Shown piece by piece: positions 24,422 through 52,548 of a stretch of 64,000 nucleotides of DNA. Position 1 is the first letter of the stretch. Every line of letters begins with the position of its first letter. The notes beneath the pieces are model-generated. The model was given only the letters and a program-made list of their open reading frames with translations. It searched no databases and had not been told where the DNA came from. The translations under genes were made by a program, and so were the position numbers. The stretch comes from Candidatus Promineifilum breve (GTDB taxonomy: Bacteria > Chloroflexota > Anaerolineae > Promineifilales > Promineifilaceae), in NCBI RefSeq assembly GCF_900066015.1, contig NZ_LN890656.1:930001-994000 (forward strand), written 5' to 3'.

Positions 24422-25411
24422 TCAAGTACCCAGAGCAGGCGAAAGGGCAAAAGCCGGGTCAAAGGGGCGGCCGGACTTAAGGACGCCGAAGGCTAGATGG
24501 AGCAGCTTGCGCATGGCGGCGACGACGATGACCATTTTGGGTTTGCCGGCGCGCTGCAGGCGCTGCTGCATGGCCTGGATGACAGGATTGTGGCGCAGGG
24601 CAACCAGCGCGGGCATGTACAACTGCGCGCGCAGGACAGCATTGCCCTTGCGGGAGGTGTGGCCGCGCCCATAGACCGATGTGCCGGATTGGCAAACGGA
24701 CGGAGCCAGGCCGGCATGGGCCACCAGTTGCCTGGGGTTGTCGAAGGCGTGGATGTTGGGCAACTCGACCATCAAGCGGACGGCGGTTAACAGACCGATG
24801 CCGGGGATGGAACGCAGCAGTTGGCAGGTGTGGCGCAGAGCGGGATGGGCCTGCAGATGGGCCTCAATGGCCTTTTGCAACGCCACGATCTGGGCCTCGA
24901 GCACGGCCAGGATGGCTTGCAGGCTGGCCTGAACGATGGGCGGATGAGAACCGGCGGTCAGGCGATTGCGCTCCTGCTGATGCATGTGTTGCACGTCGGC
25001 CACGCGCCGCACGAGGGCGCACAGCTCCTGCTGTTCCGCCGTGGGCGGCGTCCAGAGGGCAGGGCGCTGGGTGCGGCCAAAGTCCAGGATGAGGGCGGCA
25101 TCCAGCCGGTCGGTCTTGGCCCGCCGGAGCTTGGACGCACCATAGGCTTTGATGCGCGCCGGATTGACGACCGAAACGGCGTGGCCTTGTTGGCTCAGGT
25201 AGTGGGCCAGGGCCTCACCGTATCGCCCGGTGGCCTCCTGGACCGCCCACACTCGGCCGGCCCCGTTTTTGTCCAGCCAGCGGCTCAGCGCTCGAAAGCC
25301 GGCCGGGTCGTTGTCAAAGCCGCGGCTGTTCTGCCGTGGCCCGACCTGTAACACGGCCTCGAACGTGGCCTTGGCGATGTCGATGCCCAGAAAGGAATAG
25401 GTGTCTGACAT
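24422..25411 (-). CDS. IS110-family DEDD recombinase (copy A)
   Basis: 329 residues from the ATG at 25411 (MSDTYSFLGID), with AGGAG 9 bases upstream; the longer frame from 25477 lacks a ribosome site. RuvC-like domain: Asp in LGIDIAKATFE, Glu in VQEATGRYGE, Asp pair in AKTDRLDAALI. The C-terminal Tnp domain has SIPGIGLLTAVRLM and the serine region GLAPSVCQSG. Related IS110 enzymes recombine under guidance of a bridge RNA. One difference from copy B was seen, Gly/Asp in NDPAGF/NDPADF. Confidence 0.94.
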   Translation of the reverse strand: MSDTYSFLGIDIAKATFEAVLQVGPRQNSRGFDNDPAGFRALSRWLDKNGAGRVWAVQEATGRYGEALAHYLSQQGHAVSVVNPARIKAYGASKLRRAKTDRLDAALILDFGRTQRPALWTPPTAEQQELCALVRRVADVQHMHQQERNRLTAGSHPPIVQASLQAILAVLEAQIVALQKAIEAHLQAHPALRHTCQLLRSIPGIGLLTAVRLMVELPNIHAFDNPRQLVAHAGLAPSVCQSGTSVYGRGHTSRKGNAVLRAQLYMPALVALRHNPVIQAMQQRLQRAGKPKMVIVVAAMRKLLHLAFGVLKSGRPFDPAFALSPALGT

Positions 25412-25479
25412 GGTTGACGCTCCTGTTGGTTTGCTCGGATTGGCTTGACAGTCCGGCCCGGCCCTTCTGGTGAACACCC

Positions 25480-26820: not shown

Positions 26821-28527
26821 TCAATCAAACAACCCCCGCTGCCCCGCCCCCTCTTCCTTCACCCGCCCGGCCGCCTTGAACGTCATCTCGCTGGGCGGCA
26901 TATCGACCCGCGCCCGCCCGGCCAGCAGGTCGCCCACGGTCAACAGTTGCAGCCGGGGGTGGCTCGTGCCCCAGCCGGGCGAGTCATAGTCGCCCGCCCC
27001 GGCCGCCTCGGTGATCATCTCCCGCGTCGGCGGCTCCAGCGACAGGAAGACGCCGATGGCCGCCCCTTCCCGTTGCAGCGTGCCGGCCAGATCGCGCACC
27101 GCCGGGCTGCCGACCTTGCCGCTCTTCACCTGCACGATGACCCGCTTGGCCTTATTGGTGTGGTCGTCGATGAAGGTAATCAGCCCGTCGATGCCCCGGT
27201 CGGCCCCTTTCTTGCCCGTCTTGCCGCCCGCCTCGCCGCCGTAGGGGCGGGCGCGCACCAGCGACAAGGCCCACCATTGGAACTGGTAGCGGTCATCGTG
27301 GGCCAATTGGCGCGCGCCGGATTCGGTCGTCGGCTCGCCGATGACCCGGAAGGCGGCGTCGGGGAACATCTGCGTCAGGCGGTACTTTTGCAGGGCGATG
27401 GACAGATGGGTGATGTCGATGCCGATCCAGCGCCGCCCCAACTTCTGGGCCGCGGCGATGGTCGTGCCGCAGCCGCAGAACGGGTCGAGCACTACGTCGC
27501 CGGGGTTGCTGCTGGCGCTGATGATGCGCTCCAGCAGGGCCAGCGGCTTTTGGGTGGGGTAGCCGAGCAATTCTGCGTCGGCTCCTCGTATTTGGGAAAT
27601 GTCCGTCCAGACATCACCAACAACTGCACCAGATTGTTCGTCTAGATACCGTTTACGCATAATGCGACCATCCTGGCTTGATGGGAAAATTAGTAAGCCT
27701 TTCTGGTCGAGTTCTTTCATTTTCTCAATTGATACCGCCCATCCATTTCGATGAGGTTTATAGCCCTTGTATTCATACATCAAGTTCGGGCGTGGATTTG
27801 GGCTTCGCAGGTCACTAGTGTTAAACCGTCTTGCGCCTATGGGTATTTTCTGGCTTTCACGCTCTTCCTTATTCATACGACGAATAGTGCCGTCAGGAAA
27901 TTCGAGATATTGGTACCAGTCTCGAAGTGTTCTTTCTTGAAAACCTCCGAACTGCCTGGTAAAGAGAGCATCTTTGGTTCGGGAATAAACTAATATTCGA
28001 TCACTAATCATCCCATATTGCTTTTTGGCGTCGTTGTGTGCGTCCGACCTCTTCCAAGTAATCTCATTACGAAAATTCTGCACCCCAAAAATCGTATCCA
28101 ACACAATCTTGAGATAATGACTAGCCGTCGGGTCGCAATGCAAATACAGGCTGCCGGTCGGCTTCAGGACGCGGTGCAGTTCCACCAGCCGGGCGGCCAT
28201 CATCACCAGATAGGCCATCATCTGGCTGGGGCCGATGAAGCCATGCAGGGCGTCGATCAGTTGCGATACGTGGGGCGGCGCGTTCTGGATGATCTCGCGG
28301 TAGGTGCGCTCGGCGGCCCGGTTCCAGTGCCAGGTGTCCTCGAAGGCGGCGATCTGGGCTTCGGCCTCGGCCCCGCTCTCCGGCTTGAACAGCACGTTGT
28401 AGGTGCGGTTGCTGTTGAAGGGCGGGTCGAGGTAGACCAGATCGACCGAAGCGTCGGCCACGTATTCGCGCAGGATCGGCAGGTTGTCGCCGTAGAACAG
28501 GGTGTTTTCGGTGATTGGGGCGGGCAT
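26821..28527 (-). CDS. DNA methyltransferase fused to an Mrr-like nuclease domain
   Basis: 568 residues. Motif IV DPPF (34-37, [13 protein letters not shown]) precedes motif I ([16 protein letters not shown], about 340-355), the order of beta-class N6-adenine/N4-cytosine methyltransferases. A variable target-recognition region lies between them. From ~425 on there is a nuclease-like domain: [12 protein letters not shown], then [20 protein letters not shown], where Asp...QVK fits the Mrr-type PD-(D/E)xK core. It may modify and cut in one chain, or the nuclease may target foreign DNA. TATAAT lies 6 bases before the ATG with no ribosome site (leaderless). Codon use in ~27600-28100 is less GC-rich, marking the recognition region. 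Confidence 0.85.
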
Positions 28528-32027: not shown

Positions 32028-32128
32028 AATGCCCTCCGGGTGATAGATTGTTGAAGTGCCGGCCGCGCGGCTGTCGTTGCCGGCATTGTAAAATATCCGG
32101 CGAGAGATGTAAAGAAAAGAGTAGGAAG

Positions 32129-32222
32129 AGAATCCACAGATTACACAGATGACACAGATTTAAGAAGAAGAACATCTATCCTCTTAAAAATCTGTGAAAT
32201 CTGTGTAATCTGTGGATTCTCT
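32129..32222. repeat. CACAGATTACACAG-word inverted repeat
   Basis: GAGAATCCACAGATTACACAG faces its complement ending CTGTGTAATCTGTGGATTCTC (about 20 bp outer stem). Just upstream of the ParA-like gene's -10 box. Confidence 0.8.
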
Positions 32223-32223
32223 T

Positions 32224-32229
32224 TATAAT
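32224..32229 (+). promoter_or_regulatory. -10 box of leaderless ParA-like gene
   Basis: TATAAT followed 7 bases later by the GTG start; no ribosome site. Confidence 0.5.
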
Positions 32230-32236
32230 CCCCACT

Positions 32237-32977
32237 GTGAGAGTTTTCGCGCTGTATAACATCAAGGGCGGCGTGGGCAAGACGGCCGCGGCGGTCAATC
32301 TGGCCTATCTGGCGGCGCGCGACGGCCGCTCCACGCTGCTGTGGGATCTCGACCCGCAGGGCGCGGCGTCCTACTGTCTGCAAATCGACCCCAAGGTGAA
32401 GGGCGGCCGCAAGGCATTGTTGCGCGGCAAAAGTCCGGTGGCCAAACTCATCAAGCCCACGGCCTACGACAACCTGGAGCTACTGCCCAGCGACTTCTCC
32501 TACCGCAACATGGATTTGGAATTGAGCGACGCCAAGCGGCCGGAGCGCCGCTTTCGTAAGCTGCTGGAGCCGCTGGAGGAGCATTACCACACCGTCTTCC
32601 TCGACTGCCCGCCGGGCCTCACGCTGACCACCGAGAGCATGTTCGGCGCGGCCGATACGCTGCTGGCCCCGGTCATCCCCGCCGCCCTGTCGCTGCGCAC
32701 GCTGGGCCTCATCGAGGAGTTCCTGGCCCGCGAGGAGCTGACCCGGCTGCGCACGCTGGCCTTCTATAGCATGGTCGACCGGCGCAAGACGCTGCACCGC
32801 CAACTGGTGGACGCCCGCCACGCCGACCCGCGCTTCCTCTTCACGACCATCCCCTACGCCAGCGACGTGGAGCGCATGGCCGAACGGCGCGCGCCGGTGG
32901 GGGAGTTTGCGCCCCGCTCGGCGGCGGCGGCGGCGTATGAGAGTTTGTGGAAGGAAGTAGAGGGGCGGCGGACTTGA
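32237..32977 (+). CDS. ParA-family (deviant Walker) ATPase
   Basis: 246 residues from a GTG start at 32237. Deviant Walker A IKGGVGKTAAAVNLAYLA (residues ~9-26), then LLWDLDPQGAASYCL and Walker B-like VFLDCPPGLTLTTESMF. ParA proteins dimerise with ATP and position DNA or cargo. No ParB gene follows, so a chromosome-partition role is unlikely; it may position another cargo. The gene ends in a hexamer-word repeat. Confidence 0.88.
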   Translation: MRVFALYNIKGGVGKTAAAVNLAYLAARDGRSTLLWDLDPQGAASYCLQIDPKVKGGRKALLRGKSPVAKLIKPTAYDNLELLPSDFSYRNMDLELSDAKRPERRFRKLLEPLEEHYHTVFLDCPPGLTLTTESMFGAADTLLAPVIPAALSLRTLGLIEEFLAREELTRLRTLAFYSMVDRRKTLHRQLVDARHADPRFLFTTIPYASDVERMAERRAPVGEFAPRSAAAAAYESLWKEVEGRRT

Positions 32978-32979
32978 GC

Positions 32980-33160
32980 GCTGTCGCAATCGCAATCGTA
33001 ATCGAAAAGCGAAGAATCGATAGCGATTGCGATAACGATAGCGATAGGGAGCGTGGGGAGGGGTCGCTGTCGTGATCGTTGTCGCTGTCGCAATCGCTTT
33101 CGTAATCATAATCAAATTCCGAAGATCGATAGCGAAGACGATCTGATCTACTGAATACTG
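32980..33160. repeat. CAATCG / CGATTG hexamer-word palindrome
   Basis: GTCGCAATCGCAATCGTAATCG on the left, GATAGCGATTGCGATAACGATAGCG in the middle, again GTCGCTGTCGCAATCGC further right. The period is about 6 bases. The same family occurs at 10462, 38733, 41695 and 41998. Confidence 0.8.
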
Positions 33161-33180: not shown

Positions 33181-35700
33181 ATGGGCAACGAACTAACGGC
33201 AAAGGGTGCGAACGCGCTAGAGAGGGAAGGCGCGCTGGTGCAACGCTTCCTGACAATGACAGGCGATGAAGAGACTCGGGTAAACGAGCAGGCGCCAGTC
33301 AAATCAGACGACAACTTCTTCACCCGACTCGTTGCTGCGGCCGAAGCCACGCTCGATAATTGGTCGCTGTCGATTCTCAATGCCCGTTACGGCCTTTTCA
33401 ACCGGCGGTCGATGACAGTTGACGAGATCGCCATCTACTCCGGGCTGACAGCCGAAATGGTTCGTGCTCACATTGACAGCGCGCTGGAACGGCTCAACGA
33501 GCAAGGGCAGCGGGAAATCTTGGAGGGCCGTGTGGATGAACCATGCGCCCGCCTGGTGCTATACGTGAGGGCGGCTGTGCGTCCGGAGGAGGAGGGTGCG
33601 ACAGCACGTCTGATGACTTTAACCTACAAGGACCTCTCGCACCTGGAGCCACTGCTCGACTTGCCCGACCTGCTGGCCTTGTTCACCAAAGAACCGGACG
33701 AGCAACATCTCCGATCGATTATGACGCGGCTGCAAGTGTTAGAAGCTCTTCAATCCGGTGTGACGATTACCTTTCAGTCTGAATATGGCCCCGCTGAGGA
33801 ACAGGAGTTCTCAGGCCTGTTGGCCGGTGTAGAATGGCCGCCCGCACCAGCGCGCTTGAGCTTGAGCGAGATTCGACAGTTTGAACCAGGCCTGCCGGAT
33901 GAAGAAACTGTAGTCGTCCAGTTGTTTTCAAGTACCAAGAGCAACCACCGATGTCAGTTCACGAACAGCCAGGTCTTCAATTTGTTGTGCCACCTGGAGT
34001 ATAACGAGCAGGTTGTCTATTACACGGAACGGCCCCTGCGCGTTCCCAATCCTTTTACCGACGAGGGTGAGCCAAACTTTGTCGAGCCATCGCATTTGAT
34101 GGCCTTGCAAGACGGTCGGGTCGTGCTCATCGACATGACGCCTCCGGGCGAGGTCGTTTTTGGTCTCCATTCATCTCGCCGCCTGGCCCTGCGTCTCTAC
34201 TGTATGCAACATGGGTATGGACTCCTGGTCACTGACGGTCGCGACACGGCACTTAGTCATAGCCAATGGCTCTTGCCAAGCGATCGCGGCTTCTTGGTTA
34301 CCCTGAGCATGACAACCGGTCTATTGACCGGCGAACCGGCTGTTAACCTCGGCGATTTGAACCTTACCCACCGTGAGATGTGTGGGCTTGTTGCCCGTGA
34401 GAACCTGTTTTGGCTGCCGGGCACGCATGCCGTTTCCACCCAACCCCCAGGCGCGAATAGAATGGGGGAAGTGGATGATGAGGACGAAGCAGCAAGCGAG
34501 ATGGAACCGGATGACACATTCACTGACAACAAGGTGGCCGATGGCGCTGATAATGTCAGAGGAAGTAGCCAATTAATGGAACTGTTGGTTAATGCCGTAG
34601 GTTTGACGCTGGATGAGCGGGAGGGAGCCATTTTCATGGCACGCTTTGGCTTGGAAGACGGACAGGCGCGAACCCTGAGCGCAGTCGGCGATCAGTTCGG
34701 CATCACTCGCGAACGGGCACGACAGATCATCGAGAAGGGCTTTCAACGCCTAACCCGCGCGGCCAAGAGCGCCCGGCGGCGCGCCCGTTATGACGAGCCT
34801 TGCGCCCGGTTGGCGGACTACATTCGCTCGGCCGTGAACCCCGACGCTGACGATGACGCCGAACGGTTGCTGGCGTTGATGCGTACGGAGCTTCCTCAGC
34901 TACGAACCCTATCCGTGCGTGATGCAGCCATGCTGCCTGCTCGATTCCTGGGAGACAAAGAGACAGCAGCGGATTATGCCAAGCGTGTCCGCGAGTTGTT
35001 GGAAGCCGAACAGGAGGTTAGGCGTATAGAGAAGGAAGTCGCGCGCTCCGATACCAGGCTCGCCGCCCTGTTAAGGGACGTCCTCTGGCCGCCGGAGATA
35101 AGCGTTATCGCGCCGGGTGATTTCGGCACTCTCGTCGCCGCCCGTTCAGTGTCGCCCATCATGGCTAGTGAGACCGGCGCGTTCGTCAGCGGCAAATTGG
35201 ACCGTTTGGTCGAATATGAATCAGCCCTTGAACACGACTTTCTGCAACTGCTTGAAGGAACCGGCAACGTTACTTTCTATCAGGAGCAGCCATTCCGTGT
35301 TCCGTATGAGGATGACGGACAAGTTCACCATACCTACCCCGATGTGTTCTTCGTGTTGGGTGACGGGCGTGGCGTCGTGGCAGAGGTCGCACCGAACTTT
35401 GAAATGGCCCAGAAAGAGAATTGGGTTAAGTGGCATGGCCTGCGCATGTTCTGCCGCGAGCGCGGTTACGGTTTGCTTATCACTGATGGGCGTCGTACCT
35501 TTCAGAGCGTGAGCCGTCACGAGGTTCGCTTGGACATCCGCCACTCACTGCTGGCAGCGCTGGACGATGGTCCCATGAGCTGGCCGGAATACCAGGCTTG
35601 GCGCGATACGTCGGGAATCACGACCGGCGAGTTCTATGCCATTGTGATTCGCGAGCGGCTGGATTGGAGGCTGCGGCCGTACCGGCTGGCGAGGGGCTGA
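33181..35700 (+). CDS. Tandem (sigma-region-4-like HTH + TnsA-like nuclease fold) protein
   Basis: 839 residues, internally duplicated. Unit 2 has a sigma-70 region-4-like HTH (~465-527: TLSAVGDQFGITRERARQII), a helical segment (DEPCARLADYIRSAV), and a TnsA-N-like PD-(D/E)xK fold (~670-775: ESALEHDFLQLLEG, FYQEQPFRVPY, TYPDVFFVLGDGRGVVAEVA, RERGYGLLITDGR). Unit 1 (~45-370) repeats the order in diverged form (LFNRRSMTVDEIAIYSGLT, DEPCARLVLYVRAAV, VVYYTERPLRVPNPF, MQHGYGLLVTDGR). The TnsA-type EVK lysine is EVA in unit 2, and unit 1 lacks the acidic core, so cutting activity is doubtful. No TnsB/TnsC nearby. Base composition is less GC-rich than neighbours, suggesting transfer. Function unknown. 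Confidence 0.75.
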   Translation: MGNELTAKGANALEREGALVQRFLTMTGDEETRVNEQAPVKSDDNFFTRLVAAAEATLDNWSLSILNARYGLFNRRSMTVDEIAIYSGLTAEMVRAHIDSALERLNEQGQREILEGRVDEPCARLVLYVRAAVRPEEEGATARLMTLTYKDLSHLEPLLDLPDLLALFTKEPDEQHLRSIMTRLQVLEALQSGVTITFQSEYGPAEEQEFSGLLAGVEWPPAPARLSLSEIRQFEPGLPDEETVVVQLFSSTKSNHRCQFTNSQVFNLLCHLEYNEQVVYYTERPLRVPNPFTDEGEPNFVEPSHLMALQDGRVVLIDMTPPGEVVFGLHSSRRLALRLYCMQHGYGLLVTDGRDTALSHSQWLLPSDRGFLVTLSMTTGLLTGEPAVNLGDLNLTHREMCGLVARENLFWLPGTHAVSTQPPGANRMGEVDDEDEAASEMEPDDTFTDNKVADGADNVRGSSQLMELLVNAVGLTLDEREGAIFMARFGLEDGQARTLSAVGDQFGITRERARQIIEKGFQRLTRAAKSARRRARYDEPCARLADYIRSAVNPDADDDAERLLALMRTELPQLRTLSVRDAAMLPARFLGDKETAADYAKRVRELLEAEQEVRRIEKEVARSDTRLAALLRDVLWPPEISVIAPGDFGTLVAARSVSPIMASETGAFVSGKLDRLVEYESALEHDFLQLLEGTGNVTFYQEQPFRVPYEDDGQVHHTYPDVFFVLGDGRGVVAEVAPNFEMAQKENWVKWHGLRMFCRERGYGLLITDGRRTFQSVSRHEVRLDIRHSLLAALDDGPMSWPEYQAWRDTSGITTGEFYAIVIRERLDWRLRPYRLARG

Positions 35701-36022: not shown

Positions 36023-38734
36023 ATGAGTACCGAACTGAATACTGGTGTTGGAGTCAACAGCGCGGCCGAGCGTGGTTGGTTGGCCGGCCTGCTGTTGCGT
36101 CGCGGCGATACACTGTTGCCGCGACTGGCCTTTTATTATAGGAAGATGGCCGCCCTGCCGCGCCCCTGGCGGCGGCAATTGCGGCGCAAACTGGCCGTCA
36201 CCGTCAGCGGGGCGGCGCTGCTGCTGGCCCTGGCCGGGCCGGTCTTGCCCCCCGCGTTGGCCGATGCCGACGCCCCCGCGGCGACGATCACCGTCGTCAA
36301 CGGCGAAGTCGCCATCACCAACAACAACAAGTGCTCCCTGCTGGAAGCCATCATCAATGCCCGCGCCACGACCAACGGGCAAATGAAAGCCGACTGCACC
36401 AGCGGCAACATCAACGGGCCGGACACGGTGTCGCTGCCCAACGGCGGCGATTTCGTGCTGACCGCATCGCACAACTCGCAATTCGGGCCGACCGGGCTGC
36501 CGGTCATCACCGATGACATGACCATCGAGGGGCACGGCTCGGCCATCCGCCGCGACGAGACTTACACCACGCCGGAGTTTCGCATCATGGCCGTCGATCC
36601 GGGCGTCAACCTGACCATCCGCGATACGACCATCAGTGGCGGGAGTAGCAGTTATCCCTACCAGGGCGGCGGCATCCTGAACAAGGGACATCTGCTTATC
36701 GAGGGCGGCACAATTCGCGACAATTATGGTTACTGGGGTGGCGGGATCGAAAACGAGGGTAACCTTGTGGTGATCGACAGCCTGATCACGTATAACACAT
36801 CGCGTTTTGGCGGTGGGGTCGACAACGAGGGTGAACTTGTCGTGAGCGACAGCCAGTTCACGCATAACAGTGGGGAGTACGGTGGCGGTGGCGTTTACAG
36901 CCACGCCGCGACAACCGCGACCATCACCGGCAGCCTGATCGCCGAAAACTTGGCCCACTACCACAATGGCGGCGGTATCCTGAGCAGTGGTATTCTGAGC
37001 ATCGAGAACAGCACGGTTGCGAACAATTCCGCCTACGCGGGCGGCGGCATTGATGCAACGCAAGCCACCATCACCGGCAGCCAGATCATTGAGAATAATG
37101 CCTGTAATCTCTCCCACCAGGTTTATTGTTTGGATGGGGGTGGCGGCATGCGCGTTGAGAATCTGACCCTGGTCAACAGCACGGTCGCCGACAACACATC
37201 TTATGGCGGCCTGGAATTCGCCGGGTGGGGCGGCGGCCCAGGTGGCGGTATCGTCATTAACGGCACCTCCACCATTACCGGCTCGACGATTAGCGGCAAC
37301 CGGGCTATTAGCGGCTATGGTGACATTTCTGATCCTGGCCTGCCGCCGGGGATTGGGGGTGGCATCCTCATCTATGATGACGTCACTATCGTCAATAGCA
37401 CGATCAGTGGCAACGAGGCGAACTATGGCGGTGGGATTCTCGTCGCCGAAGGTGACGTGACATTGATCCATACCACCCTGACCGGCAACGTTGCCAAGTA
37501 TGAGAGTTACTATAACGAAGAGTACTATGCTACGTACTCTGCCTCCGGGCTTGGCGGCGGCTTGTTTGTTGGCGGAACATTTGATTATGACGCCTCACCA
37601 ACTGTGTCGCTGAGCGGGTCGATCTTTTCCGGGAACACCGCCGACACGGCGGGGCGCGAAATCATGGGCAGTGCATCGGCCATCACCGGCAACGCCTTCA
37701 ACGTCATCGGCCGCAATGGTAACGCCGGAACGTCCGGCTTCACCCCCGGCGCGACCGACATCGTGCCCTCGGCCGGCCTCAACGCCATCCTCAGCCCCCT
37801 GGCCGACAACGGCGGGCCGACCATGACCCACGCATTGCCACAGGGCAGCCCGGCCCTCGACCGCGCGCCCAATGCCTCGTGTACGGCCGCGCCGGTCAAC
37901 GGCGTCGATCAGCGCGGCGAACCGCGCAACCAGAACGGCGCGGGCAACGCGAGCAACAACGAGTGCGACGCGGGCAGCTTTGAGCGGCAGGCGGGCGGCG
38001 GCGGCGGCGCGGCCTTCCTCGTCTCCCCGTCGGGCAGCGGCACGGTCGGCGGGGTCGCCTTTGCCCCCAGCGACATCCTGAAGTACGACCCGGCGGCCGG
38101 CTGGTCGATGTACTTCGACGGCTCCGACGTGGGCATCACCAAGAACCTGAGCGGCTTCGAACTGCTGGGCAACGGCGACATCCTCATGTCGTTCCAGGCC
38201 AGGCAGACCATCCCCGGCGTGGGGTCGTTCATGCCCCAGGACATCGCCCGCTTCGACCCGACGACTACCGGCGACAACACGGCCGGCGCCTTCCAATGGG
38301 CGCTGGACGGCTCGACCAAGGGGCTATCGACCAGCGGCGAGAAGATCGACGCGCTCGGCCTGTCGGCCGGGTCGTGGGCGATCAGCACCACCGGCGCGGC
38401 CACTGTCCCCTCCGGCGGCGGCACGCTGAAGGCCCAGGACGAGGATGCCCTGCTCTTTGATCCGGGCAGCGGCGGCTGGTCGGCCTTCTTCGACGGCACG
38501 CCCATCCCCGGCCTGAAGGCCGAGGACGTCAACGCCCTGTGGGTCGACCCGACCAACGGCGACCTGTATATCAGCCTGCTCAACGCGTTCAACCTGAGCG
38601 GGGTCAGCGGCAACGGCCGCGACATCGTGAAACTGACCAACAACGGCGGCGGCAGCTACACCCCGTCACTGTGGTGGAACGGCGCGGCGGCCGGCTTCCC
38701 GGTGAATGTGGATGGGGTCGAGATTCTGCCCTAA
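36023..38734 (+). CDS. Secreted right-handed beta-helix protein, paralogue 1
   Basis: 903 residues. TTAGGAG lies ~8 bases before ATG 36023. A long N-terminal extension (~50 residues, GLLLRRGDTLLPRLAFYYRK) precedes a signal-like helix (LAVTVSGAALLLALAGP). CSLLEAIINAR (near 110) is the usual opening of choice-of-anchor/parallel beta-helix proteins. About 180-570 contain ~20-residue coils with SxIxxNxAxxGGGI patterns (VANNSAYAGGGI, STISGNEANYGGGI). After PALDRAPNASC (~615) comes a C-terminal ~250-residue domain (ILKYDPAAGWSMYFDGSDVG, DALLFDPGSGGWSAFFDG, LYISLLNAFNLSGVSGNG). Likely a surface or secreted adhesin or polysaccharide-binding protein. It is paired with the next gene. Confidence 0.85.
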   Translation: MSTELNTGVGVNSAAERGWLAGLLLRRGDTLLPRLAFYYRKMAALPRPWRRQLRRKLAVTVSGAALLLALAGPVLPPALADADAPAATITVVNGEVAITNNNKCSLLEAIINARATTNGQMKADCTSGNINGPDTVSLPNGGDFVLTASHNSQFGPTGLPVITDDMTIEGHGSAIRRDETYTTPEFRIMAVDPGVNLTIRDTTISGGSSSYPYQGGGILNKGHLLIEGGTIRDNYGYWGGGIENEGNLVVIDSLITYNTSRFGGGVDNEGELVVSDSQFTHNSGEYGGGGVYSHAATTATITGSLIAENLAHYHNGGGILSSGILSIENSTVANNSAYAGGGIDATQATITGSQIIENNACNLSHQVYCLDGGGGMRVENLTLVNSTVADNTSYGGLEFAGWGGGPGGGIVINGTSTITGSTISGNRAISGYGDISDPGLPPGIGGGILIYDDVTIVNSTISGNEANYGGGILVAEGDVTLIHTTLTGNVAKYESYYNEEYYATYSASGLGGGLFVGGTFDYDASPTVSLSGSIFSGNTADTAGREIMGSASAITGNAFNVIGRNGNAGTSGFTPGATDIVPSAGLNAILSPLADNGGPTMTHALPQGSPALDRAPNASCTAAPVNGVDQRGEPRNQNGAGNASNNECDAGSFERQAGGGGGAAFLVSPSGSGTVGGVAFAPSDILKYDPAAGWSMYFDGSDVGITKNLSGFELLGNGDILMSFQARQTIPGVGSFMPQDIARFDPTTTGDNTAGAFQWALDGSTKGLSTSGEKIDALGLSAGSWAISTTGAATVPSGGGTLKAQDEDALLFDPGSGGWSAFFDGTPIPGLKAEDVNALWVDPTNGDLYISLLNAFNLSGVSGNGRDIVKLTNNGGGSYTPSLWWNGAAAGFPVNVDGVEILP

Positions 38735-39119: not shown

Positions 39120-41696
39120 ATGAGTACCGAACTGAATACTGGTGTTGGAGTCAACAGCGCGGCCGAGCGTGGTTGGTTGGCCGGCCTGCTGTTGCGTCGT
39201 GGCGATACACTGTTGCCGCGACTGGCCTTTTATTATAGGAAGATGGCCGCCCTGCCGCGCCCCTGGCGGCGGCAATTGCGGCGCAAACTGGCCGTCACCG
39301 TCAGCGGGGCGGCGCTGCTGCTGGCCCTGGCCGGGCCGGTCTTGCCCCCCGCGTTGGCCGATGCCGACGCCCCCGCGGCGACGATCACCGTCGTCAACGG
39401 CGAGGTCGCCATCACCAACAACAACAAGTGCTCCCTGATGGAAGCCATCATCAACGCCCGCGCCGAAACCAACAATCAAATGAAGGCCGACTGCGCCAGC
39501 GGCAACATCAACGGGCCGGATACGGTGTCGCTGCCCAACGGCGGCGATTTCGTGCTGACCGCGCCCCACAACGAGCAAAATGGCCCCACCGGCTTGCCGG
39601 TCATCACCACCAGCATGACCATCGAGGGGCACGGCGCGACGATTCGCCGCAGCACGGCCACGTACTCCCATTTCCGCATCATGGCCGTCGATCCCGGCGC
39701 CACCCTGACCCTGCGCGACACGACCATCCGCGACGGGTGGGCCTCTCCTGACTACGACGATGGCCCCGGTGGCGGTATTCTGAGCCGTGGCAACCTGGTC
39801 ATCGAGAATTGCACGATTGCCGACAATTACGGCTACTATAAAGGTGGCGGTATTTATGCCGCTGGGCAATTGACCATTACCGGCTCCAGCGTCACGAACA
39901 ATTGGGTTTGGGGTTCTGCTGCGGCCGGCGGCGGGATTTTTGCCAATGGGCAAACCAACATCACGGATAGCACCATTGCCGATAATCGGGCCTCGGCAGA
40001 CGATATCACTGCTCACGGCGGTGGGTTATATATCGGCCCGGATGCTCAGGCGACTATCTCCGGTAGCCTGATCAACCAGAACACAGCCTCTTCGCATTAT
40101 GATACCGCCGGCGCCGGTATTTTTGTCTACGGTCAGGCGACGATTGTTGACAGCACCATCGCCGAAAACATTAATAGTGGTAATGAGGGTGGCGGTACGG
40201 GCGGCGGCGTTTATGTGACCGGGCAGGCGACGATCTCCGGTAGTACCATCCGCGACAACGTTGTCCATGCATTTTACGAGGGTTACTCCTATGATTTGCA
40301 CCCGGCCTACGGCGGCGGTCTCCATAACGATGGCACGACCCTCGTTGTAAACAGCACGATCAGCGGCAATACGGCCGGTTATGGCGGCGGAGTGGTGAAC
40401 ACGCATGAGGGTAATTTGACGATATGGCACACCACCATCACCGATAATCATGCCATTCAGGAAGTTGCCGACTATGATGAAGCCGGTGGCAGCGGTGGTG
40501 GATTATTCTCCGGGCCTCACTATCAGGGTGAGAATTGCTCGGCGACGACACTGCGCGGAGTCATCATTTCCGGTAACACGTCCGACATTTCGGCGAAGCA
40601 GGCGCTTTTCGTGCCGCCGACACCCGGTTACTGTTCGGCGTCGATCACCGTCAACGCCTTTAACGTCTTCGGTCAGGGCGGTAATGCCGGCCTCGTCGGC
40701 TTCACCCCCGGCGCGACCGACATCGTGCCCTCGGCCGGCCTCAACGCCATCCTCAGCCCCCTGGCCGACAACGGCGGGCCGACGATGACCCATGCATTGC
40801 CGCAGGGCAGCCCAGCCCTCGACCGCGCGCCCAATGCCTCGTGTACGGCCGCCCCGGTCAACGGCGTCGATCAGCGCGGCGAACCGCGCAACCAGAACGG
40901 CGCGGGCAATGTGACCAACAACGAGTGCGACGCAGGCAGCTTCGAGCGGCAGGCGGGCGGCGGCGGCGGCGCGGCCTTCCTCGTCTCCCCGTCGGGCAGC
41001 GGCACGGTCGGCGGCGTGGCCTTCGCCCCCAGCGACATCCTGAAGTACGACCCGGCGGCCGGCTGGTCGATGTACTTCGACGGCTCCGACGTGGGCATCA
41101 CCAAGAACCTGAGCGGCTTCGAACTGCTGGGCAACGGCGACATCCTCATGTCGTTCCAGGCCAGGCAGACCATCCCCGGCGTGGGGTCGTTCATGCCCCA
41201 GGACATCGCCCGCTTCGACCCGACGACCACCGGCGACAACACGGCCGGCGCCTTCCAATGGGCGCTGGACGGCTCGACCAAGGGGCTATCGACCAGTGGC
41301 GAGAAGATCGACGCGCTCGGCCTGTCGGACGGGTTGTGGGCGATCAGCACCACCGGCGCGGCCACTGTCCCCTCCGGCGGCGGCACGCTGAAGGCCCAGG
41401 ACGAGGATGCCCTGCTCTTTGATCCGGGCAGCGGCAACTGGTCGGCCTTCTTCGACGGCACGCCCATCCCCGGCCTGAAGGCCGAGGACGTCAACGCCCT
41501 GTGGGTCGACCCGACCAACGGCGACCTGTATATCAGCCTGCTCAACGCGTTCAATCTGAGCGGGGTTAGCGGCAACGGCCGCGACATCGTGAAACTGACC
41601 AACAACGGCGGCGGCAGCTACACCCCGTCACTGTGGTGGAACGGCGCGGCGGCCGGCTTCCCGGTGAATGTGGATGGGCTGGAGATTCTGCCCTAA
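39120..41696 (+). CDS. Secreted right-handed beta-helix protein, paralogue 2
   Basis: 858 residues with the same layout as paralogue 1. The first ~125 residues are nearly identical (CSLMEAIINARAET replaces CSLLEAIINARATT). The central helix coils (~170-520: ITGSSVTNNWVWGSAAAGGG, DSTIADNRASADD, STISGNTAGYGGGVV) are different in sequence and length. The ~310 C-terminal residues from FTPGATDIVPSAGLNAILSP on are again almost identical. This pattern of identical ends and free-changing centre suggests duplication followed by gene conversion at the ends and selection for variety in the exposed helix. Confidence 0.85.
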   Translation: MSTELNTGVGVNSAAERGWLAGLLLRRGDTLLPRLAFYYRKMAALPRPWRRQLRRKLAVTVSGAALLLALAGPVLPPALADADAPAATITVVNGEVAITNNNKCSLMEAIINARAETNNQMKADCASGNINGPDTVSLPNGGDFVLTAPHNEQNGPTGLPVITTSMTIEGHGATIRRSTATYSHFRIMAVDPGATLTLRDTTIRDGWASPDYDDGPGGGILSRGNLVIENCTIADNYGYYKGGGIYAAGQLTITGSSVTNNWVWGSAAAGGGIFANGQTNITDSTIADNRASADDITAHGGGLYIGPDAQATISGSLINQNTASSHYDTAGAGIFVYGQATIVDSTIAENINSGNEGGGTGGGVYVTGQATISGSTIRDNVVHAFYEGYSYDLHPAYGGGLHNDGTTLVVNSTISGNTAGYGGGVVNTHEGNLTIWHTTITDNHAIQEVADYDEAGGSGGGLFSGPHYQGENCSATTLRGVIISGNTSDISAKQALFVPPTPGYCSASITVNAFNVFGQGGNAGLVGFTPGATDIVPSAGLNAILSPLADNGGPTMTHALPQGSPALDRAPNASCTAAPVNGVDQRGEPRNQNGAGNVTNNECDAGSFERQAGGGGGAAFLVSPSGSGTVGGVAFAPSDILKYDPAAGWSMYFDGSDVGITKNLSGFELLGNGDILMSFQARQTIPGVGSFMPQDIARFDPTTTGDNTAGAFQWALDGSTKGLSTSGEKIDALGLSDGLWAISTTGAATVPSGGGTLKAQDEDALLFDPGSGNWSAFFDGTPIPGLKAEDVNALWVDPTNGDLYISLLNAFNLSGVSGNGRDIVKLTNNGGGSYTPSLWWNGAAAGFPVNVDGLEILP

Positions 41697-44727: not shown

Positions 44728-45717
44728 TCAAGTACCCAGAGCAGGCGAAAGGGCAAAAGCCGGGTCAAAGGGGCGGCCGGACTTAAGGACGCCGAAGGCC
44801 AGATGGAGCAGCTTGCGCATGGCGGCGACGACGATGACCATTTTGGGTTTGCCGGCGCGCTGCAGGCGCTGCTGCATGGCCTGGATGACAGGATTGTGGC
44901 GCAGGGCAACCAGCGCGGGCATGTACAACTGCGCGCGCAGGACAGCATTGCCCTTGCGGGAGGTGTGGCCGCGCCCATAGACCGATGTGCCGGATTGGCA
45001 AACGGACGGAGCCAGGCCGGCATGGGCCACCAGTTGCCTGGGGTTGTCGAAGGCGTGGATGTTGGGCAACTCGACCATCAAGCGGACGGCGGTCAACAGA
45101 CCGATGCCGGGGATGGAACGCAGCAGTTGGCAGGTGTGGCGCAGAGCGGGATGGGCCTGCAGATGGGCCTCAATGGCCTTTTGCAACGCCACGATCTGGG
45201 CCTCGAGCACGGCCAGGATGGCTTGCAGGCTGGCCTGAACGATGGGCGGATGAGAACCGGCGGTCAGGCGATTGCGCTCCTGCTGATGCATGTGTTGCAC
45301 GTCGGCCACGCGCCGCACGAGGGCGCACAGCTCCTGCTGTTCGGCTGTGGGCGGCGTCCAGAGGGCAGGGCGCTGGGTGCGGCCAAAATCCAGGATGAGG
45401 GCGGCATCCAGCCGGTCGGTCTTGGCCCGCCGGAGCTTGGACGCACCATAGGCTTTGATGCGCGCCGGATTGACGACCGAAACGGCGTGGCCTTGTTGGC
45501 TCAGGTAGTGGGCCAGGGCCTCACCGTATCGCCCGGTGGCCTCCTGGACCGCCCACACTCGGCCGGCCCCGTTTTTGTCCAGCCAGCGGCTCAGCGCTCG
45601 AAAGTCGGCCGGGTCGTTGTCAAAGCCGCGGCTGTTCTGCCGTGGCCCGACCTGTAACACGGCCTCGAACGTGGCCTTGGCGATGTCGATGCCCAGAAAG
45701 GAATAGGTGTCTGACAT
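44728..45717 (-). CDS. IS110-family DEDD recombinase (copy B)
   Basis: 329 residues from ATG 45717, identical to copy A except Asp for Gly in NDPADFRAL, as far as I compared. All catalytic elements (GIDIAK, QEATGRYGE, KTDRLDAALI, GLAPSVCQSG) are intact. However, the non-coding end upstream is interrupted at 45895 by an IS5-type element, within the segment that matches the target. The protein could still act with the RNA of copy A. Confidence 0.94.
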   Translation of the reverse strand: MSDTYSFLGIDIAKATFEAVLQVGPRQNSRGFDNDPADFRALSRWLDKNGAGRVWAVQEATGRYGEALAHYLSQQGHAVSVVNPARIKAYGASKLRRAKTDRLDAALILDFGRTQRPALWTPPTAEQQELCALVRRVADVQHMHQQERNRLTAGSHPPIVQASLQAILAVLEAQIVALQKAIEAHLQAHPALRHTCQLLRSIPGIGLLTAVRLMVELPNIHAFDNPRQLVAHAGLAPSVCQSGTSVYGRGHTSRKGNAVLRAQLYMPALVALRHNPVIQAMQQRLQRAGKPKMVIVVAAMRKLLHLAFGVLKSGRPFDPAFALSPALGT

Positions 45718-45894
45718 GGTTGACGCTCCTGTTGGTTTGCTCGGATTGGCTTGACAGTCCGGCCCGGCCCTTCTGGTGAACACCCTTGTTCATTCAGGCT
45801 CTTTCTGTGGTAGAATGGCCTACGATACCGTTCGTTCTGGCGAAGGGCTTGCGGGTAGGGGACCTCATCTACGTTTCAGGTGTAGCTACCCCTA

Positions 45895-48160: not shown

Positions 48161-48373
48161 AGTATGAAGTATGAAGTATGAAGTATGAATTATGAATGGA
48201 GAGCGAGCGGCGGGTTTGAACCCGCCGTGGATTCGTCCCCCGGCCGGCGTCCCCCGGTCGGCGTTGCCTGGAACGCGCCACCCGCTACCCGCCACTCGCC
48301 ACCCGCCACCCGCCACCCGCCACCCGCCACCCGCCACCCGCCACCCGCCACCCGCCACCCGCTACCCGCCACT
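48157..48373. repeat. GAAGTAT and CACCCGC word arrays
   Basis: Tandem GAAGTATGAAGTATGAA (48152-48196), a GGCGGGTTTGAACCCGCC palindrome (48209-48226), and more than ten tandem CCACCCG words (48269-48373) that run into the McrC-like gene stop. Confidence 0.82.
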
Positions 48374-49585
48374 CCCCAACACCTCCCCCACAAACCGCCG
48401 GCAATTCTCCCGAAAATCCGCCAACGACCCATTGAGCGACAGCGCGCGCATCTCCAGCCGCACCCCGGCGCGCAGCACGTGGTCGTCGGTCAGCGGCGTA
48501 TCGCCGGGATAGACCAGCAGGCCGCGGCCGACGCCCAGGGTGTGGCAATAGGTCACCATCTGATGCACGTCGGCCGGGGTCGGCTTGTCCCCATAGACCT
48601 TGTACTTGGTGTCGAGCACCAGCGTGTCGCGGCCGTCGCGGCGCAGCACGATGTCGGGCCGCCCCGCCAGCCGCCGCGCCTCGTCGAGCCAGATGGGGGC
48701 CTGGGCCGCCACCTGATAGCGGGGCTGGGTCGCCGCCGCCTCGGCCAACAGCCGGGCCACGAACAACTCGAACAGCCGGTACATGGGCACGAGGAAGGTA
48801 GCAAACGGCGTGGCCCCGGCCCGCCCTTCCAGCGACAGATAGCGCAGAAACAGCCGGGCCAGATTGATGGGCGACCGGTAGCGCTCGGTCAGGCGGGTGT
48901 AGACCACGCCGTCGCATTCGGCCGGGGTGATGGCCGCCGGCGCGACCTCAGCGAAAGCGGCCAGCGTCCGGCGGGCGCGCGGCCCCAGGTCGGCATCGCC
49001 AAAGCGCGCCCGGGCCAGCAGGGCCAACGCCGCGCGCAGGATGCGGTTCTCCAGCACGTCGGCGGTGAACTCGTTGACCCGCTGCTGGAAGCCGACGGCC
49101 ACCGGGCCGCGCCGCACCTGTTGGGCCAGCAGCAGCCGCCCGCGCAGCCGCGCCCCGCTCTCCTCGACATCGACGTAGCCGCGATGGATGCCCCGCCGCA
49201 CGAGGTCGTCCACCTGGCCGAGAAAGATGCGCACGATGAAATCGAACAATGCCTCGCCGGCCGTCAAGGGGGCTAACTGGTCGCCGAAATCGGGCAGTTC
49301 GTGGGCATAGGTCAGCATGTAGAACAGGTTGGCGATGGGCACTTTCGGCGCGATGAGGATGCGCAGCGCGGGATCGCCGTCAATGGCGATGGAGCCGACG
49401 TAGGGCCCGGCGCTCAGGTCATAACCGCCCGGCGACCACGAGGGGGCCACGCGCAATTGGCCGTCGCGGTAGGTGGCGCGGAGGGCGGCGGCGGTGGTGG
49501 GGGAGAGGGGGACGGCGGTTAGGGTTTCGCTTTCCCGCAGGTGGATGAGGCGCGGTTCGGGCGTGGTCGTCGAGGATGGCATCAT
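48362..49585 (-). CDS. McrC-like component of a modification-dependent restriction system
   Basis: 407 residues from ATG 49585 (AGGA ~10 bases upstream). The N-terminal beta-rich part (GGYDLSAGPYVGSIAIDGDP, IAPKVPIANLFYMLTYAHEL) and the middle (RGRLLLAQQVRRGPVAV, EFTADVLENRILRAALALL) match McrC. The C-terminal PD-(D/E)xK is visible in GRPDIVLRRDGRDTLVLDTKYK (shown in two halves: GRPDIVLRRDG and LVLDTKYK). McrC normally works with the McrB GTPase, which is not encoded in the window. It lies directly downstream of hsdS, separated by ~200 bases of palindromes. Confidence 0.85.
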   Translation of the reverse strand: MMPSSTTTPEPRLIHLRESETLTAVPLSPTTAAALRATYRDGQLRVAPSWSPGGYDLSAGPYVGSIAIDGDPALRILIAPKVPIANLFYMLTYAHELPDFGDQLAPLTAGEALFDFIVRIFLGQVDDLVRRGIHRGYVDVEESGARLRGRLLLAQQVRRGPVAVGFQQRVNEFTADVLENRILRAALALLARARFGDADLGPRARRTLAAFAEVAPAAITPAECDGVVYTRLTERYRSPINLARLFLRYLSLEGRAGATPFATFLVPMYRLFELFVARLLAEAAATQPRYQVAAQAPIWLDEARRLAGRPDIVLRRDGRDTLVLDTKYKVYGDKPTPADVHQMVTYCHTLGVGRGLLVYPGDTPLTDDHVLRAGVRLEMRALSLNGSLADFRENCRRFVGEVLGSGG

Positions 49586-49615
49586 CAATTCGTTCCTACT
49601 CACTGTGCGACCGCC

Positions 49616-49798
49616 GGCCCGGCGGGTTCAAACCCGCCGCTGCCACACGAAACCGGCTGAAGCCGGTTGCGGAGGGCGCGCCCCTCCGGCAGTGCGTTGC
49701 AACGCACTTGGTGTACCAGCCGCGGGATTCATCCCGCGCGGCCGGCCGTGAACCGTGGTTATTTTGTGAATCGGCCACACCCCGCCACCCGCCACCCG
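49616..49798. repeat. Cluster of distinct palindromes
   Basis: GGCGGGTTCAAACCCGCC, AACCGGCTGAAGCCGGTT, GGAGGGCGCGCCCCTCC, GTGCGTTGCAACGCAC and CCGCGGGATTCATCCCGCG-like hairpins follow each other between hsdS and the McrC-like gene. Possible terminators. Confidence 0.8.
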
Positions 49799-50986
49799 CT
49801 ACAACGCCCCTTTGAACGCCCGGTCGAGGATGGCGGGCAGGAGGGCGTCGAGTTCCTGGTTGGTTTGGGTCTGTTCTAATTGCACCAATTGAATCTGACT
49901 CTGATAATTATCCAGTTGGTTGACAATCTTTATTTGCTCGTCGATTGGGGGCAAGGGTATCTCGAATTGCGCCACTTGTGATTTGGTAATAGCCTGTCTC
50001 GTCGCTCCCTTTTGCTGCTCATTGATAGAATTTTGCATACTAGGACGACTTAGCCAATACATCAAATACCGATTGTTAAGCGTTTGGGTGGGCCGAATAA
50101 TCATAACATGCTGGGTTACATTGGCGGTTGGGACATTCGGCGCACAGGATACACGTCCTATCGAAGCACCCGTGATATTCAACAGAACATCATTAGGTTC
50201 CACCTGCGTTCCAGCCATTTGTTGATGAACATCATCGCTAATAAACGCAATCCCATCCCATTGGAATGTACGCATGCGGACGTTTAGGCTACGAATCAAG
50301 GGAACCCCGCTTTCCGCGTATACCTCCTTCCCTCCCCTAGGGGTTGAGCCACTGCCTATCTTAGTCGTGAGGTGTCTGAGGGGATAAGCTGGATGATGAA
50401 TTTCCTCAAAGGCAGTGTCAATCAAGTTTTCGAGCAGCAAGTGGGTCTCCGTGGTCGCCTCCTCCCGCAACCGCCGCGCCGCCGCGATCTTGCCCGCCAA
50501 CGCCTCGATGCGGGCCACGATGCGTTGTTGCTCGACCAGGGGTGGGAGAGGGATGGTCAAGTCCCAGAATTGGGGAGGATTCAACGTCAGCTTACTGATA
50601 GCCGCAGCGCCCTTTGACAGGTTCTCCGCTTGTTTGGCGATCGATGGAGTTTGAAAATAGTAACGAAGATAACCGAGATCGAGTTGTTCAGGGTCATGCC
50701 GATAAGTGGGAAACTTGTCGGAAGCAATCTGCCCATGCACGTCTGCTCCTGCAATGGCAAATGATCCCTTCCAGGCAAATAACTTGTTGTAGATCACATC
50801 CCCGGATTCAACTACCCACTGCTGCTTTCGGCTGATATTCATCCCCAATTCACTATCGCGGATAAACGCTCCAAGACCATACCAGCGCACACCTATTCGT
50901 TGATACGTTACCGTATCTTCTAGGATAACCTTACGTTCGACCCGTTCAAACAAGTGAGCAAACGGTACGATTGGAAACTTACTCAC
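49799..50986 (-). CDS. hsdS: Type I restriction-modification specificity subunit
   Basis: 395 residues with two target-recognition domains, each followed by a conserved helix. TRD1 (~1-150) ends IPLPPLVEQQRIVARIEALA. TRD2 (~200-345) starts YPLRHLTTKIGSGSTPRGGK and ends IPLPPIDEQIKIVNQLDNYQ. It reads the bipartite DNA site and docks HsdM. Its start overlaps the hsdM stop by 4 bases (50983-50986), so translation is coupled. The TRDs are less GC-rich than the rest, as is common for exchanged modules. Confidence 0.95.
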   Translation of the reverse strand: MSKFPIVPFAHLFERVERKVILEDTVTYQRIGVRWYGLGAFIRDSELGMNISRKQQWVVESGDVIYNKLFAWKGSFAIAGADVHGQIASDKFPTYRHDPEQLDLGYLRYYFQTPSIAKQAENLSKGAAAISKLTLNPPQFWDLTIPLPPLVEQQRIVARIEALAGKIAAARRLREEATTETHLLLENLIDTAFEEIHHPAYPLRHLTTKIGSGSTPRGGKEVYAESGVPLIRSLNVRMRTFQWDGIAFISDDVHQQMAGTQVEPNDVLLNITGASIGRVSCAPNVPTANVTQHVMIIRPTQTLNNRYLMYWLSRPSMQNSINEQQKGATRQAITKSQVAQFEIPLPPIDEQIKIVNQLDNYQSQIQLVQLEQTQTNQELDALLPAILDRAFKGAL

Positions 50987-52470: not shown

Positions 52471-52548
52471 AGTGGGTAGTGGTCAGTGGTCGGTGGTCAG
52501 TGGTCGGTGGTCGGTGGTCGCTGACCACTGACCACCGACCACCGACCA
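52471..52548. repeat. GGTCAGTGGTCGGT / ACCGACCACTGACC word palindrome
   Basis: Tandem GTGGTCAGTGGTCGGTGGTC words facing GACCACTGACCACCGACC words. It fills the gap between hsdR and hsdM. Confidence 0.85.

What the first reader, a model, noticed from the sequence alone, without database searches (positions are those of the whole stretch)
33181..35700. Duplicated sigma-region-4-like HTH + TnsA-like nuclease fold in one protein
Two units of HTH, DEPCARL helix segment and TnsA-N-like fold. Unit 2 keeps the Glu (SALEHDFL) and Asp (YPDVFF) but has EVA instead of EVK. Unit 1 is further degraded but keeps the fold words (YYTERPLRVP, HGYGLLVTDGR). A DNA-binding protein evolved from a transposition endonuclease, possibly a regulator or a defence/anti-mobile factor. 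Lower GC than neighbours and position next to IS-rich DNA suggest transfer. I know of no described system with this layout.
Basis: partly seen in the sequence, partly recalled or inferred. Interest (0 to 1): 0.8.

Follow-up and report, generated by a model that had tools for sequence, protein, structure and literature searches.

The report
Doubled, disarmed DNA-binding nuclease protein
One bacterial protein holds two copies of a DNA-binding module joined to a DNA-cutting module, in which the cutting residues are lost in steps (one of four in copy 2, all in copy 1) while selection keeps the part of the protein that could be compared, so a plasmid-type nuclease has apparently been turned into a double DNA-binding protein of unproven purpose.

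Summary
ORF 33181-35700 (839 aa) is an intact tandem duplication (29% identity over 383 aa, E=1e-34). Each unit has a sigma-region-4-type HTH, a helical linker with a WPP motif, and a TnsA-like PD-(D/E)xK fold. An AF2 model of the unit 2 domain matches Tn7 TnsA at Z=13. Unit 2 keeps E684, D721 and E735 but has A737 in place of Lys. Unit 1 has lost all the catalytic residues and the -35-reading residues of its HTH. A 78%-identical relative in one other genome of the genus, cut at a contig end before unit 2's nuclease fold, shows purifying selection on unit 1 (dN/dS 0.07-0.20), so unit 1 is not a relic. There is no Tn7 element in this genome. The layout is not wholly new: collinear single-unit proteins with intact catalytic residues sit on about 300 IncI/K-type plasmids (pCT_066, an 'unusual putative sigma factor'; published knock-out without phenotype) and on a Mycobacteroides abscessus plasmid. 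The duplication arose in the Chloroflexota-side lineage, followed by stepwise active-site loss. Best reading: a catalytically dead, bivalent DNA-binding protein (regulator or roadblock). In G002 it lies downstream of brxL-dndA (type 4 BREX-like), a link seen once.

The parts
33181..35700 (+). 839-aa protein, two tandem HTH + TnsA-like units
   Evidence: Intact ORF; duplication E=1e-34; 78% identical homologue in G002 over 631 aa
33316..33516 (+). Unit 1 HTH (residues 46-112), region-4-like; recognition helix degraded (GLTAEMVRAHIDSA)
   Evidence: Pfam Sigma70_r4 x2; alignment with RpoD; dN/dS 0.07
33517..33840 (+). Unit 1 helical linker with DEPCARL and WPP
   Evidence: Alignments; dN/dS 0.20
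33889..34260 (+). Unit 1 TnsA-like fold, catalytic positions V265, S304, D318, T320 (predicted inactive)
   Evidence: hhalign vs TnsA E=2.4e-7, vs single-unit family E=1.5e-11; alignment; numbering; dN/dS 0.16 over residues 216-375
34418..34545 (+). Acidic, weakly conserved linker between the units (residues 413-455)
   Evidence: dN/dS 0.48, higher than the folded parts
34546..34770 (+). Unit 2 HTH (residues 456-530), recognition helix GITRERARQIIEKG as in sigma region 4.2
   Evidence: Sigma70_r4 E=1.6e-14; RpoD alignment
34771..35100 (+). Unit 2 helical linker with DEPCARL and WPP
   Evidence: Alignments; low-confidence AF2 shows helices
35167..35499 (+). Unit 2 TnsA-like PD-(D/E)xK fold (residues 663-773): E684, D721, E735 kept, Lys replaced by A737
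   Evidence: AF2 domain model, core pLDDT mostly 70-93; TnsA 1f1z Z=13.1, 112 residues, rmsd 2.7; Foldseek E=1e-5
35500..35697 (+). C-terminal tail of unit 2 (shared with unit 1 and single-unit relatives)
   Evidence: Alignments
32237..32977 (+). Upstream ParA-like ATPase: neighbour, probably not part of the system
   Evidence: PF13614 E=6e-31; present in G003, G004, G005 and G007, where only sigma-type matches to the query protein were listed and other genes follow it

Best explanation
The protein descends from a family of single-unit DNA-binding nucleases found mainly on plasmids: a sigma-region-4-type HTH, a helical linker, and a TnsA-type PD-(D/E)xK endonuclease. In this Chloroflexota lineage the gene was duplicated head to tail within one ORF, and the active sites were lost in steps (the lysine in unit 2, every catalytic residue in unit 1). 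The product is most likely a catalytically dead protein with two DNA-binding units. Unit 2's HTH keeps the residues with which sigma factors read -35-like DNA. Both TnsA-like folds serve to clamp DNA or to pair the units. Its role would be to bind promoter-like or other double-stranded DNA and block or bridge it (a repressor or roadblock of mobile DNA). Shown: duplication, homology, fold of unit 2, residue losses, purifying selection on unit 1. Inferred: inactivity, DNA binding, -35 preference, the regulatory or blocking role.
For: Duplication E=1e-34. Collinear single-unit homologues: IncI/K protein BLASTP E=1e-30 over about 400 aa including the HTH, M. abscessus plasmid protein. Tree: single-unit and double-unit nuclease domains group apart from TnsA (91/79); units 1 and 2 are sisters (98/90), so duplication came after the split. 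Catalytic residues intact in the single-unit relatives (E355, D392, E406, K408; E249, D286, E300, K302) and lost stepwise here. Unit 2 fold = TnsA, Z=13.1. HTH residues TRERxRQ kept in unit 2 and in RpoD. dN/dS for unit 1 HTH 0.07, linker 0.20, nuclease-like fold 0.16: a non-catalytic function is maintained. No TnsA/Tn7 elsewhere in the genome.
Against: No DNA-binding, expression or activity data. Some PD-(D/E)xK enzymes work without the canonical Lys (own knowledge: BamHI, BglII), so unit 2 might still cut. The G002 copy is cut off at a contig end before unit 2's nuclease fold, so the K-to-A change is seen in one genome only and selection on that fold could not be measured. Unit 1's HTH has lost the -35-reading residues, so bivalent -35 binding is not indicated. 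No TTGACA enrichment near the G002 gene. The only genetic test of a relative (pCT_066 knock-out) gave no phenotype.
Confidence: 0.5

Rival explanations
1. Unit 2 is still a working endonuclease, with the missing lysine replaced by a nearby residue (for example the conserved Lys of the following helix), and unit 1 is a regulatory or dimerisation partner.
For: E684, D721 and E735 retained; the K-W pair of the next helix is shared by unit 2 and phage gp4-type relatives; a half-dead tandem can act as a pseudo-dimer (inference).
Against: The canonical Lys is present in both single-unit relatives and nearly invariant in the TnsA proteins aligned but is Ala here; unit 1 lost every catalytic residue.
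Confidence: 0.2
2. It is an accessory of a defence locus, for instance of type 4 BREX (phosphorothioate-linked), where a dead nuclease fold binds modified or foreign DNA.
For: In G002 it lies directly downstream of brxL, a dndA/sspA-like cysteine desulfurase and a phage-type antirepressor, same strand; type 4 BREX has BrxL and DndA-like enzymes (PMC12839542). The window itself holds a type I R-M set, McrC and an MTase-Mrr gene within 20 kb.
Against: G000 has no BrxL (an empty answer without a positive control); its copy sits beside ParA. Plasmid relatives have no BREX neighbours in the stretches read. One link only; the G002 contig ends inside brxL on one side and inside the target on the other.
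Confidence: 0.15
3. It acts as a sigma factor or sigma-like transcription initiator.
For: Best profile hits of the HTH are RpoD region 4 (TIGR02393 E=5.5e-19); a relative is called a putative sigma factor.
Against: No region 2 or 3 in this protein or in the IncI and M. abscessus relatives in Pfam scans, so no core-binding or -10 melting parts.
Confidence: 0.05
4. It is a decaying relic of a transferred gene.
For: Low GC3, loss of active sites, patchy occurrence (2 genomes of the genus).
Against: Intact 839-codon frame and dN/dS 0.21 overall, 0.07-0.20 in the unit whose active site is entirely gone.
Confidence: 0.05

Closest known systems
pCT_066 / WP_000004563-type protein of IncI/K conjugative plasmids ('TnsA endonuclease N-terminal domain-containing protein', 'unusual putative sigma factor')
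   Same: Same order: region-4 HTH, helical linker, WP motif, TnsA-like fold; BLASTP E=1e-30
   Different: One unit, catalytic E/D/ExK intact, extra N-terminal region of about 125 aa, located on plasmids between excA and a hok-type gene; found in 256 of 5,426 complete E. coli genomes, always on plasmids
WP_206491613 of Mycobacteroides abscessus plasmid pGD21-1
   Same: Single-unit version, 404 aa, homologous with the IncI protein over nearly its whole length
   Different: One unit, intact active site, next to a WhiB gene and a 662-aa protein without a Pfam match
TnsA of Tn7 and Tn7-like transposons (1F1Z, 1T0F, PseTnsAB)
   Same: PD-(D/E)xK core fold, Z=13.1; PDB profile hit E=2e-7
   Different: No HTH of this type before the nuclease, works with TnsB encoded next door; here no TnsB/TnsC and the active site is lost
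Phage T4 gp4-type head-completion nucleases (PHROG 218)
   Same: Weak profile match to the nuclease-like fold (P0001 E=3.9e-5, IncI protein E=1.2e-11)
   Different: Short stand-alone phage morphogenesis proteins, no HTH
Sigma-70 region 4
   Same: HTH with TRERxRQ recognition helix in unit 2
   Different: No region 2 or 3; not a sigma factor

Membership tests
HTH-TnsA single-unit plasmid family (pCT_066 type) | Collinear region-4 HTH, linker with WP motif, TnsA-like fold | tested here: met
   BLASTP E=1e-30, alignments, tree
HTH-TnsA single-unit plasmid family (pCT_066 type) | Single unit with intact E, D, ExK | tested here: not met
   Two units; A737 in unit 2, all lost in unit 1: a derived variant
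Tn7-like TnsA | PD-(D/E)xK fold of the TnsA type | tested here: met
   Unit 2 Z=13.1 with 1f1z; unit 1 by profile only, E=2.4e-7
Tn7-like TnsA | Gene next to tnsB in a transposon | tested here: not met
   Neighbours are ParA and surface proteins; no other TnsA match in the genome
Tn7-like TnsA | Catalytic residues intact | tested here: not met
Sigma-70 factors | Region 4.2 HTH | tested here: met
   (unit 2; unit 1 degraded)
Sigma-70 factors | Region 2 (core RNAP and -10 binding) | tested here: not met
   No Sigma70_r2 in Pfam scans to E=1
Active PD-(D/E)xK nuclease | Cleavage of DNA | not testable with these tools
   Residue loss argues against it; needs an assay
Type 4 BREX component | Recurrent linkage to brxL/brxC/pglZ/PAPS reductase | tested here: inconclusive
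   Linked to brxL and dndA in G002, no BrxL found in G000; G002 contig too short

The most novel reading that the evidence does not exclude
A plasmid or mobile-element nuclease with a sigma-type DNA reader was duplicated and stepwise disarmed to make a two-headed DNA clamp that silences or blocks promoters of invading DNA, working beside R-M/BREX-type defence. This would be a dead-nuclease silencing factor built from a TnsA-type enzyme.
Probability: 0.2. Interest if true: 0.65.

Novelty: new variant of a known kind. Interest (0 to 1): 0.5.

Why it matters
It shows a case of enzyme-to-binder evolution with the intermediates visible: intact single-unit relatives, a unit missing one catalytic residue, and a unit missing all yet under purifying selection. 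It also corrects the reading of pCT_066, a gene on widespread E. coli resistance plasmids called a putative sigma factor: it has no sigma region 2 but carries a complete TnsA-type active site, so the published knock-out assays (stability, transfer, growth, biofilm, competition) may not have been the ones that show a nuclease's role, such as action on other incoming DNA.

Tried and rejected
1) Tn7-like element around the gene: no TnsB/C near it, no other TnsA in the genome. 2) More full-length relatives in Chloroflexota: only G000 and G002 gave full-length-type matches among the genomes sampled; the other hits looked into were TnsA proteins of transposons or C-terminal parts of large helicase-type proteins. 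3) Viral contigs: no relative with P0001, P0002, P0003 or A2; the A7 TnsA search was also empty. 4) The genome-contig scan returned a single locus, matching the HTH only. 5) CP061251 as a 73%-identical divergent relative: rejected, its frame is broken by stops and frameshifts, probably sequencing errors; its dN/dS was not used. 6) Two weak class hits outside the fold (G116, G416; E about 3e-4 and 7e-4) look like chance. 7) Whole-unit AF2 with two sequences: pLDDT 48.6, not used for fold claims. 8) TTGACA near the G002 gene: no excess. 9) Literature: no paper found for the annotation names or for TnsA plus region 4; the library holds only open-licence papers. 10) A dN/dS of the IncI family was not obtained, because the other copies read were near-identical or broken.

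Full report
Observation. The window has a single intact ORF at 33181-35700, + strand, 839 aa. Its two halves align at 29% identity over 383 aa, E=1e-34. Pfam finds sigma-70 region 4 twice and the TnsA-like N-terminal domain once, in unit 2, slightly under the curated cut-off.

Fold. A domain model of unit 2's nuclease-like part, made with unit 1 and phage gp4-type relatives as alignment rows, has pLDDT mostly 70-93 across the core (residues 663-772). It matches Tn7 TnsA at Z=13.1 over 112 residues, rmsd 2.7; apart from the TnsA chain of the TnsABCD transpososome (7.7), the other rows lie at 7.6 and below. Unit 1 was not modelled on its own; its fold rests on profile comparison (E=2.4e-7 to TnsA, 1.5e-11 to the single-unit family). 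A model of the whole of unit 2 with two sequences was too weak to use (pLDDT 48.6).

Active site. Aligned with ten TnsA proteins and the two single-unit relatives (numbering), unit 2 keeps E684, D721 and E735 but has A737 where those rows have Lys. Unit 1 has V265, S304, D318 and T320. The single-unit relatives keep all four. Unit 1's HTH also lost the first two Arg and the Gln of the TRERxRQ helix that unit 2 shares with RpoD.

Family. Searching plasmids with the HTH-free part of unit 2 gave matches with E about 1e-19 covering 72% of the query on IncI-complex plasmids. The gene there encodes a 528-aa protein with one unit, collinear with unit 2 over about 400 aa including the HTH. With that protein as query, 331 plasmid records match, 279 of them over at least 80% of its length; the gene is in 256 of 5,426 complete E. 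coli genomes, always on plasmids. A third member, 404 aa, is on M. abscessus plasmid pGD21-1. In a tree of nuclease domains these and our two units separate from TnsA (91/79), and units 1 and 2 are sisters (98/90). The long branch of unit 1 fits relaxed catalytic constraint.

Published work. [quoted passage not shown] Its inactivation changed nothing in stability, conjugation, growth, biofilm or competition (PMC4083329). The domain scan of the near-identical P0002 shows no sigma region 2 and a TnsA-like domain over the Pfam cut-off, so the name is doubtful.

Selection. G000 against G002, 628 codons: dN/dS 0.21 overall; unit 1 HTH 0.07, linker 0.20, nuclease-like fold 0.16; inter-unit acidic linker 0.48; unit 2 HTH 0.26 and linker 0.14. 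The G002 contig ends before unit 2's nuclease fold, so nothing can be said about selection there, and the loss of Lys in unit 2 rests on one genome.

Context. In G000 the gene follows a ParA-like gene that G003, G004, G005 and G007 also carry, with other genes downstream; only sigma-type matches to the protein were listed in these four. GC3 is 0.65 against 0.75-0.92 nearby, in keeping with transfer; the G002 copy has 0.72. In G002 the order is brxL, dndA/sspA-like, P22-type antirepressor, target, all on one strand. BrxL with a DndA-like enzyme fits type 4 BREX (PMC12839542), but the contig holds no more of the set. In this window defence genes lie at 26.8-28.5 kb and 48.4-54.9 kb.

Reading. 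A dead, double DNA-binding protein is the simplest account of loss of catalysis together with constraint. What it binds and why are not known. Duplication, homology, the unit 2 fold, residue changes and selection on the compared part are shown; inactivity, DNA binding and role are inferred.

Noticed in passing
26821-28527 (-): One gene joins an N6/N4 DNA methylase to an Mrr-type restriction nuclease domain.
   Followed up: no
48362-54897 (-): McrC-like gene next to a type I R-M set (HsdS, HsdM, HsdR with EcoEI C-terminal domain); no obvious McrB among the ORFs just upstream.
   Followed up: partly
36023-38734 and 39120-41696 (+): Two neighbouring surface-type proteins with nearly identical N- and C-terminal parts and different middle parts.
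   Followed up: no
32124-32224 and 32978-33110: Dispersed repeats of ATCGCAATCGTAATC type with matches in many places of the genome.
   Followed up: no
24422-25477 (-), 44728-45783 (-), 62064-63401 (+): Two IS110-type transposases and a DDE_5 transposase: the region is rich in insertion sequences.
   Followed up: no
L068:3813-6735: In Klebsiella plasmid p16HN-12_2 the single-unit gene is split by an IS3-family transposase gene.
   Followed up: partly
L210:3001-4578: The E. coli pSTEC399_1 copy of the single-unit gene has several stops and frameshifts, more likely sequencing errors than divergence.
   Followed up: yes
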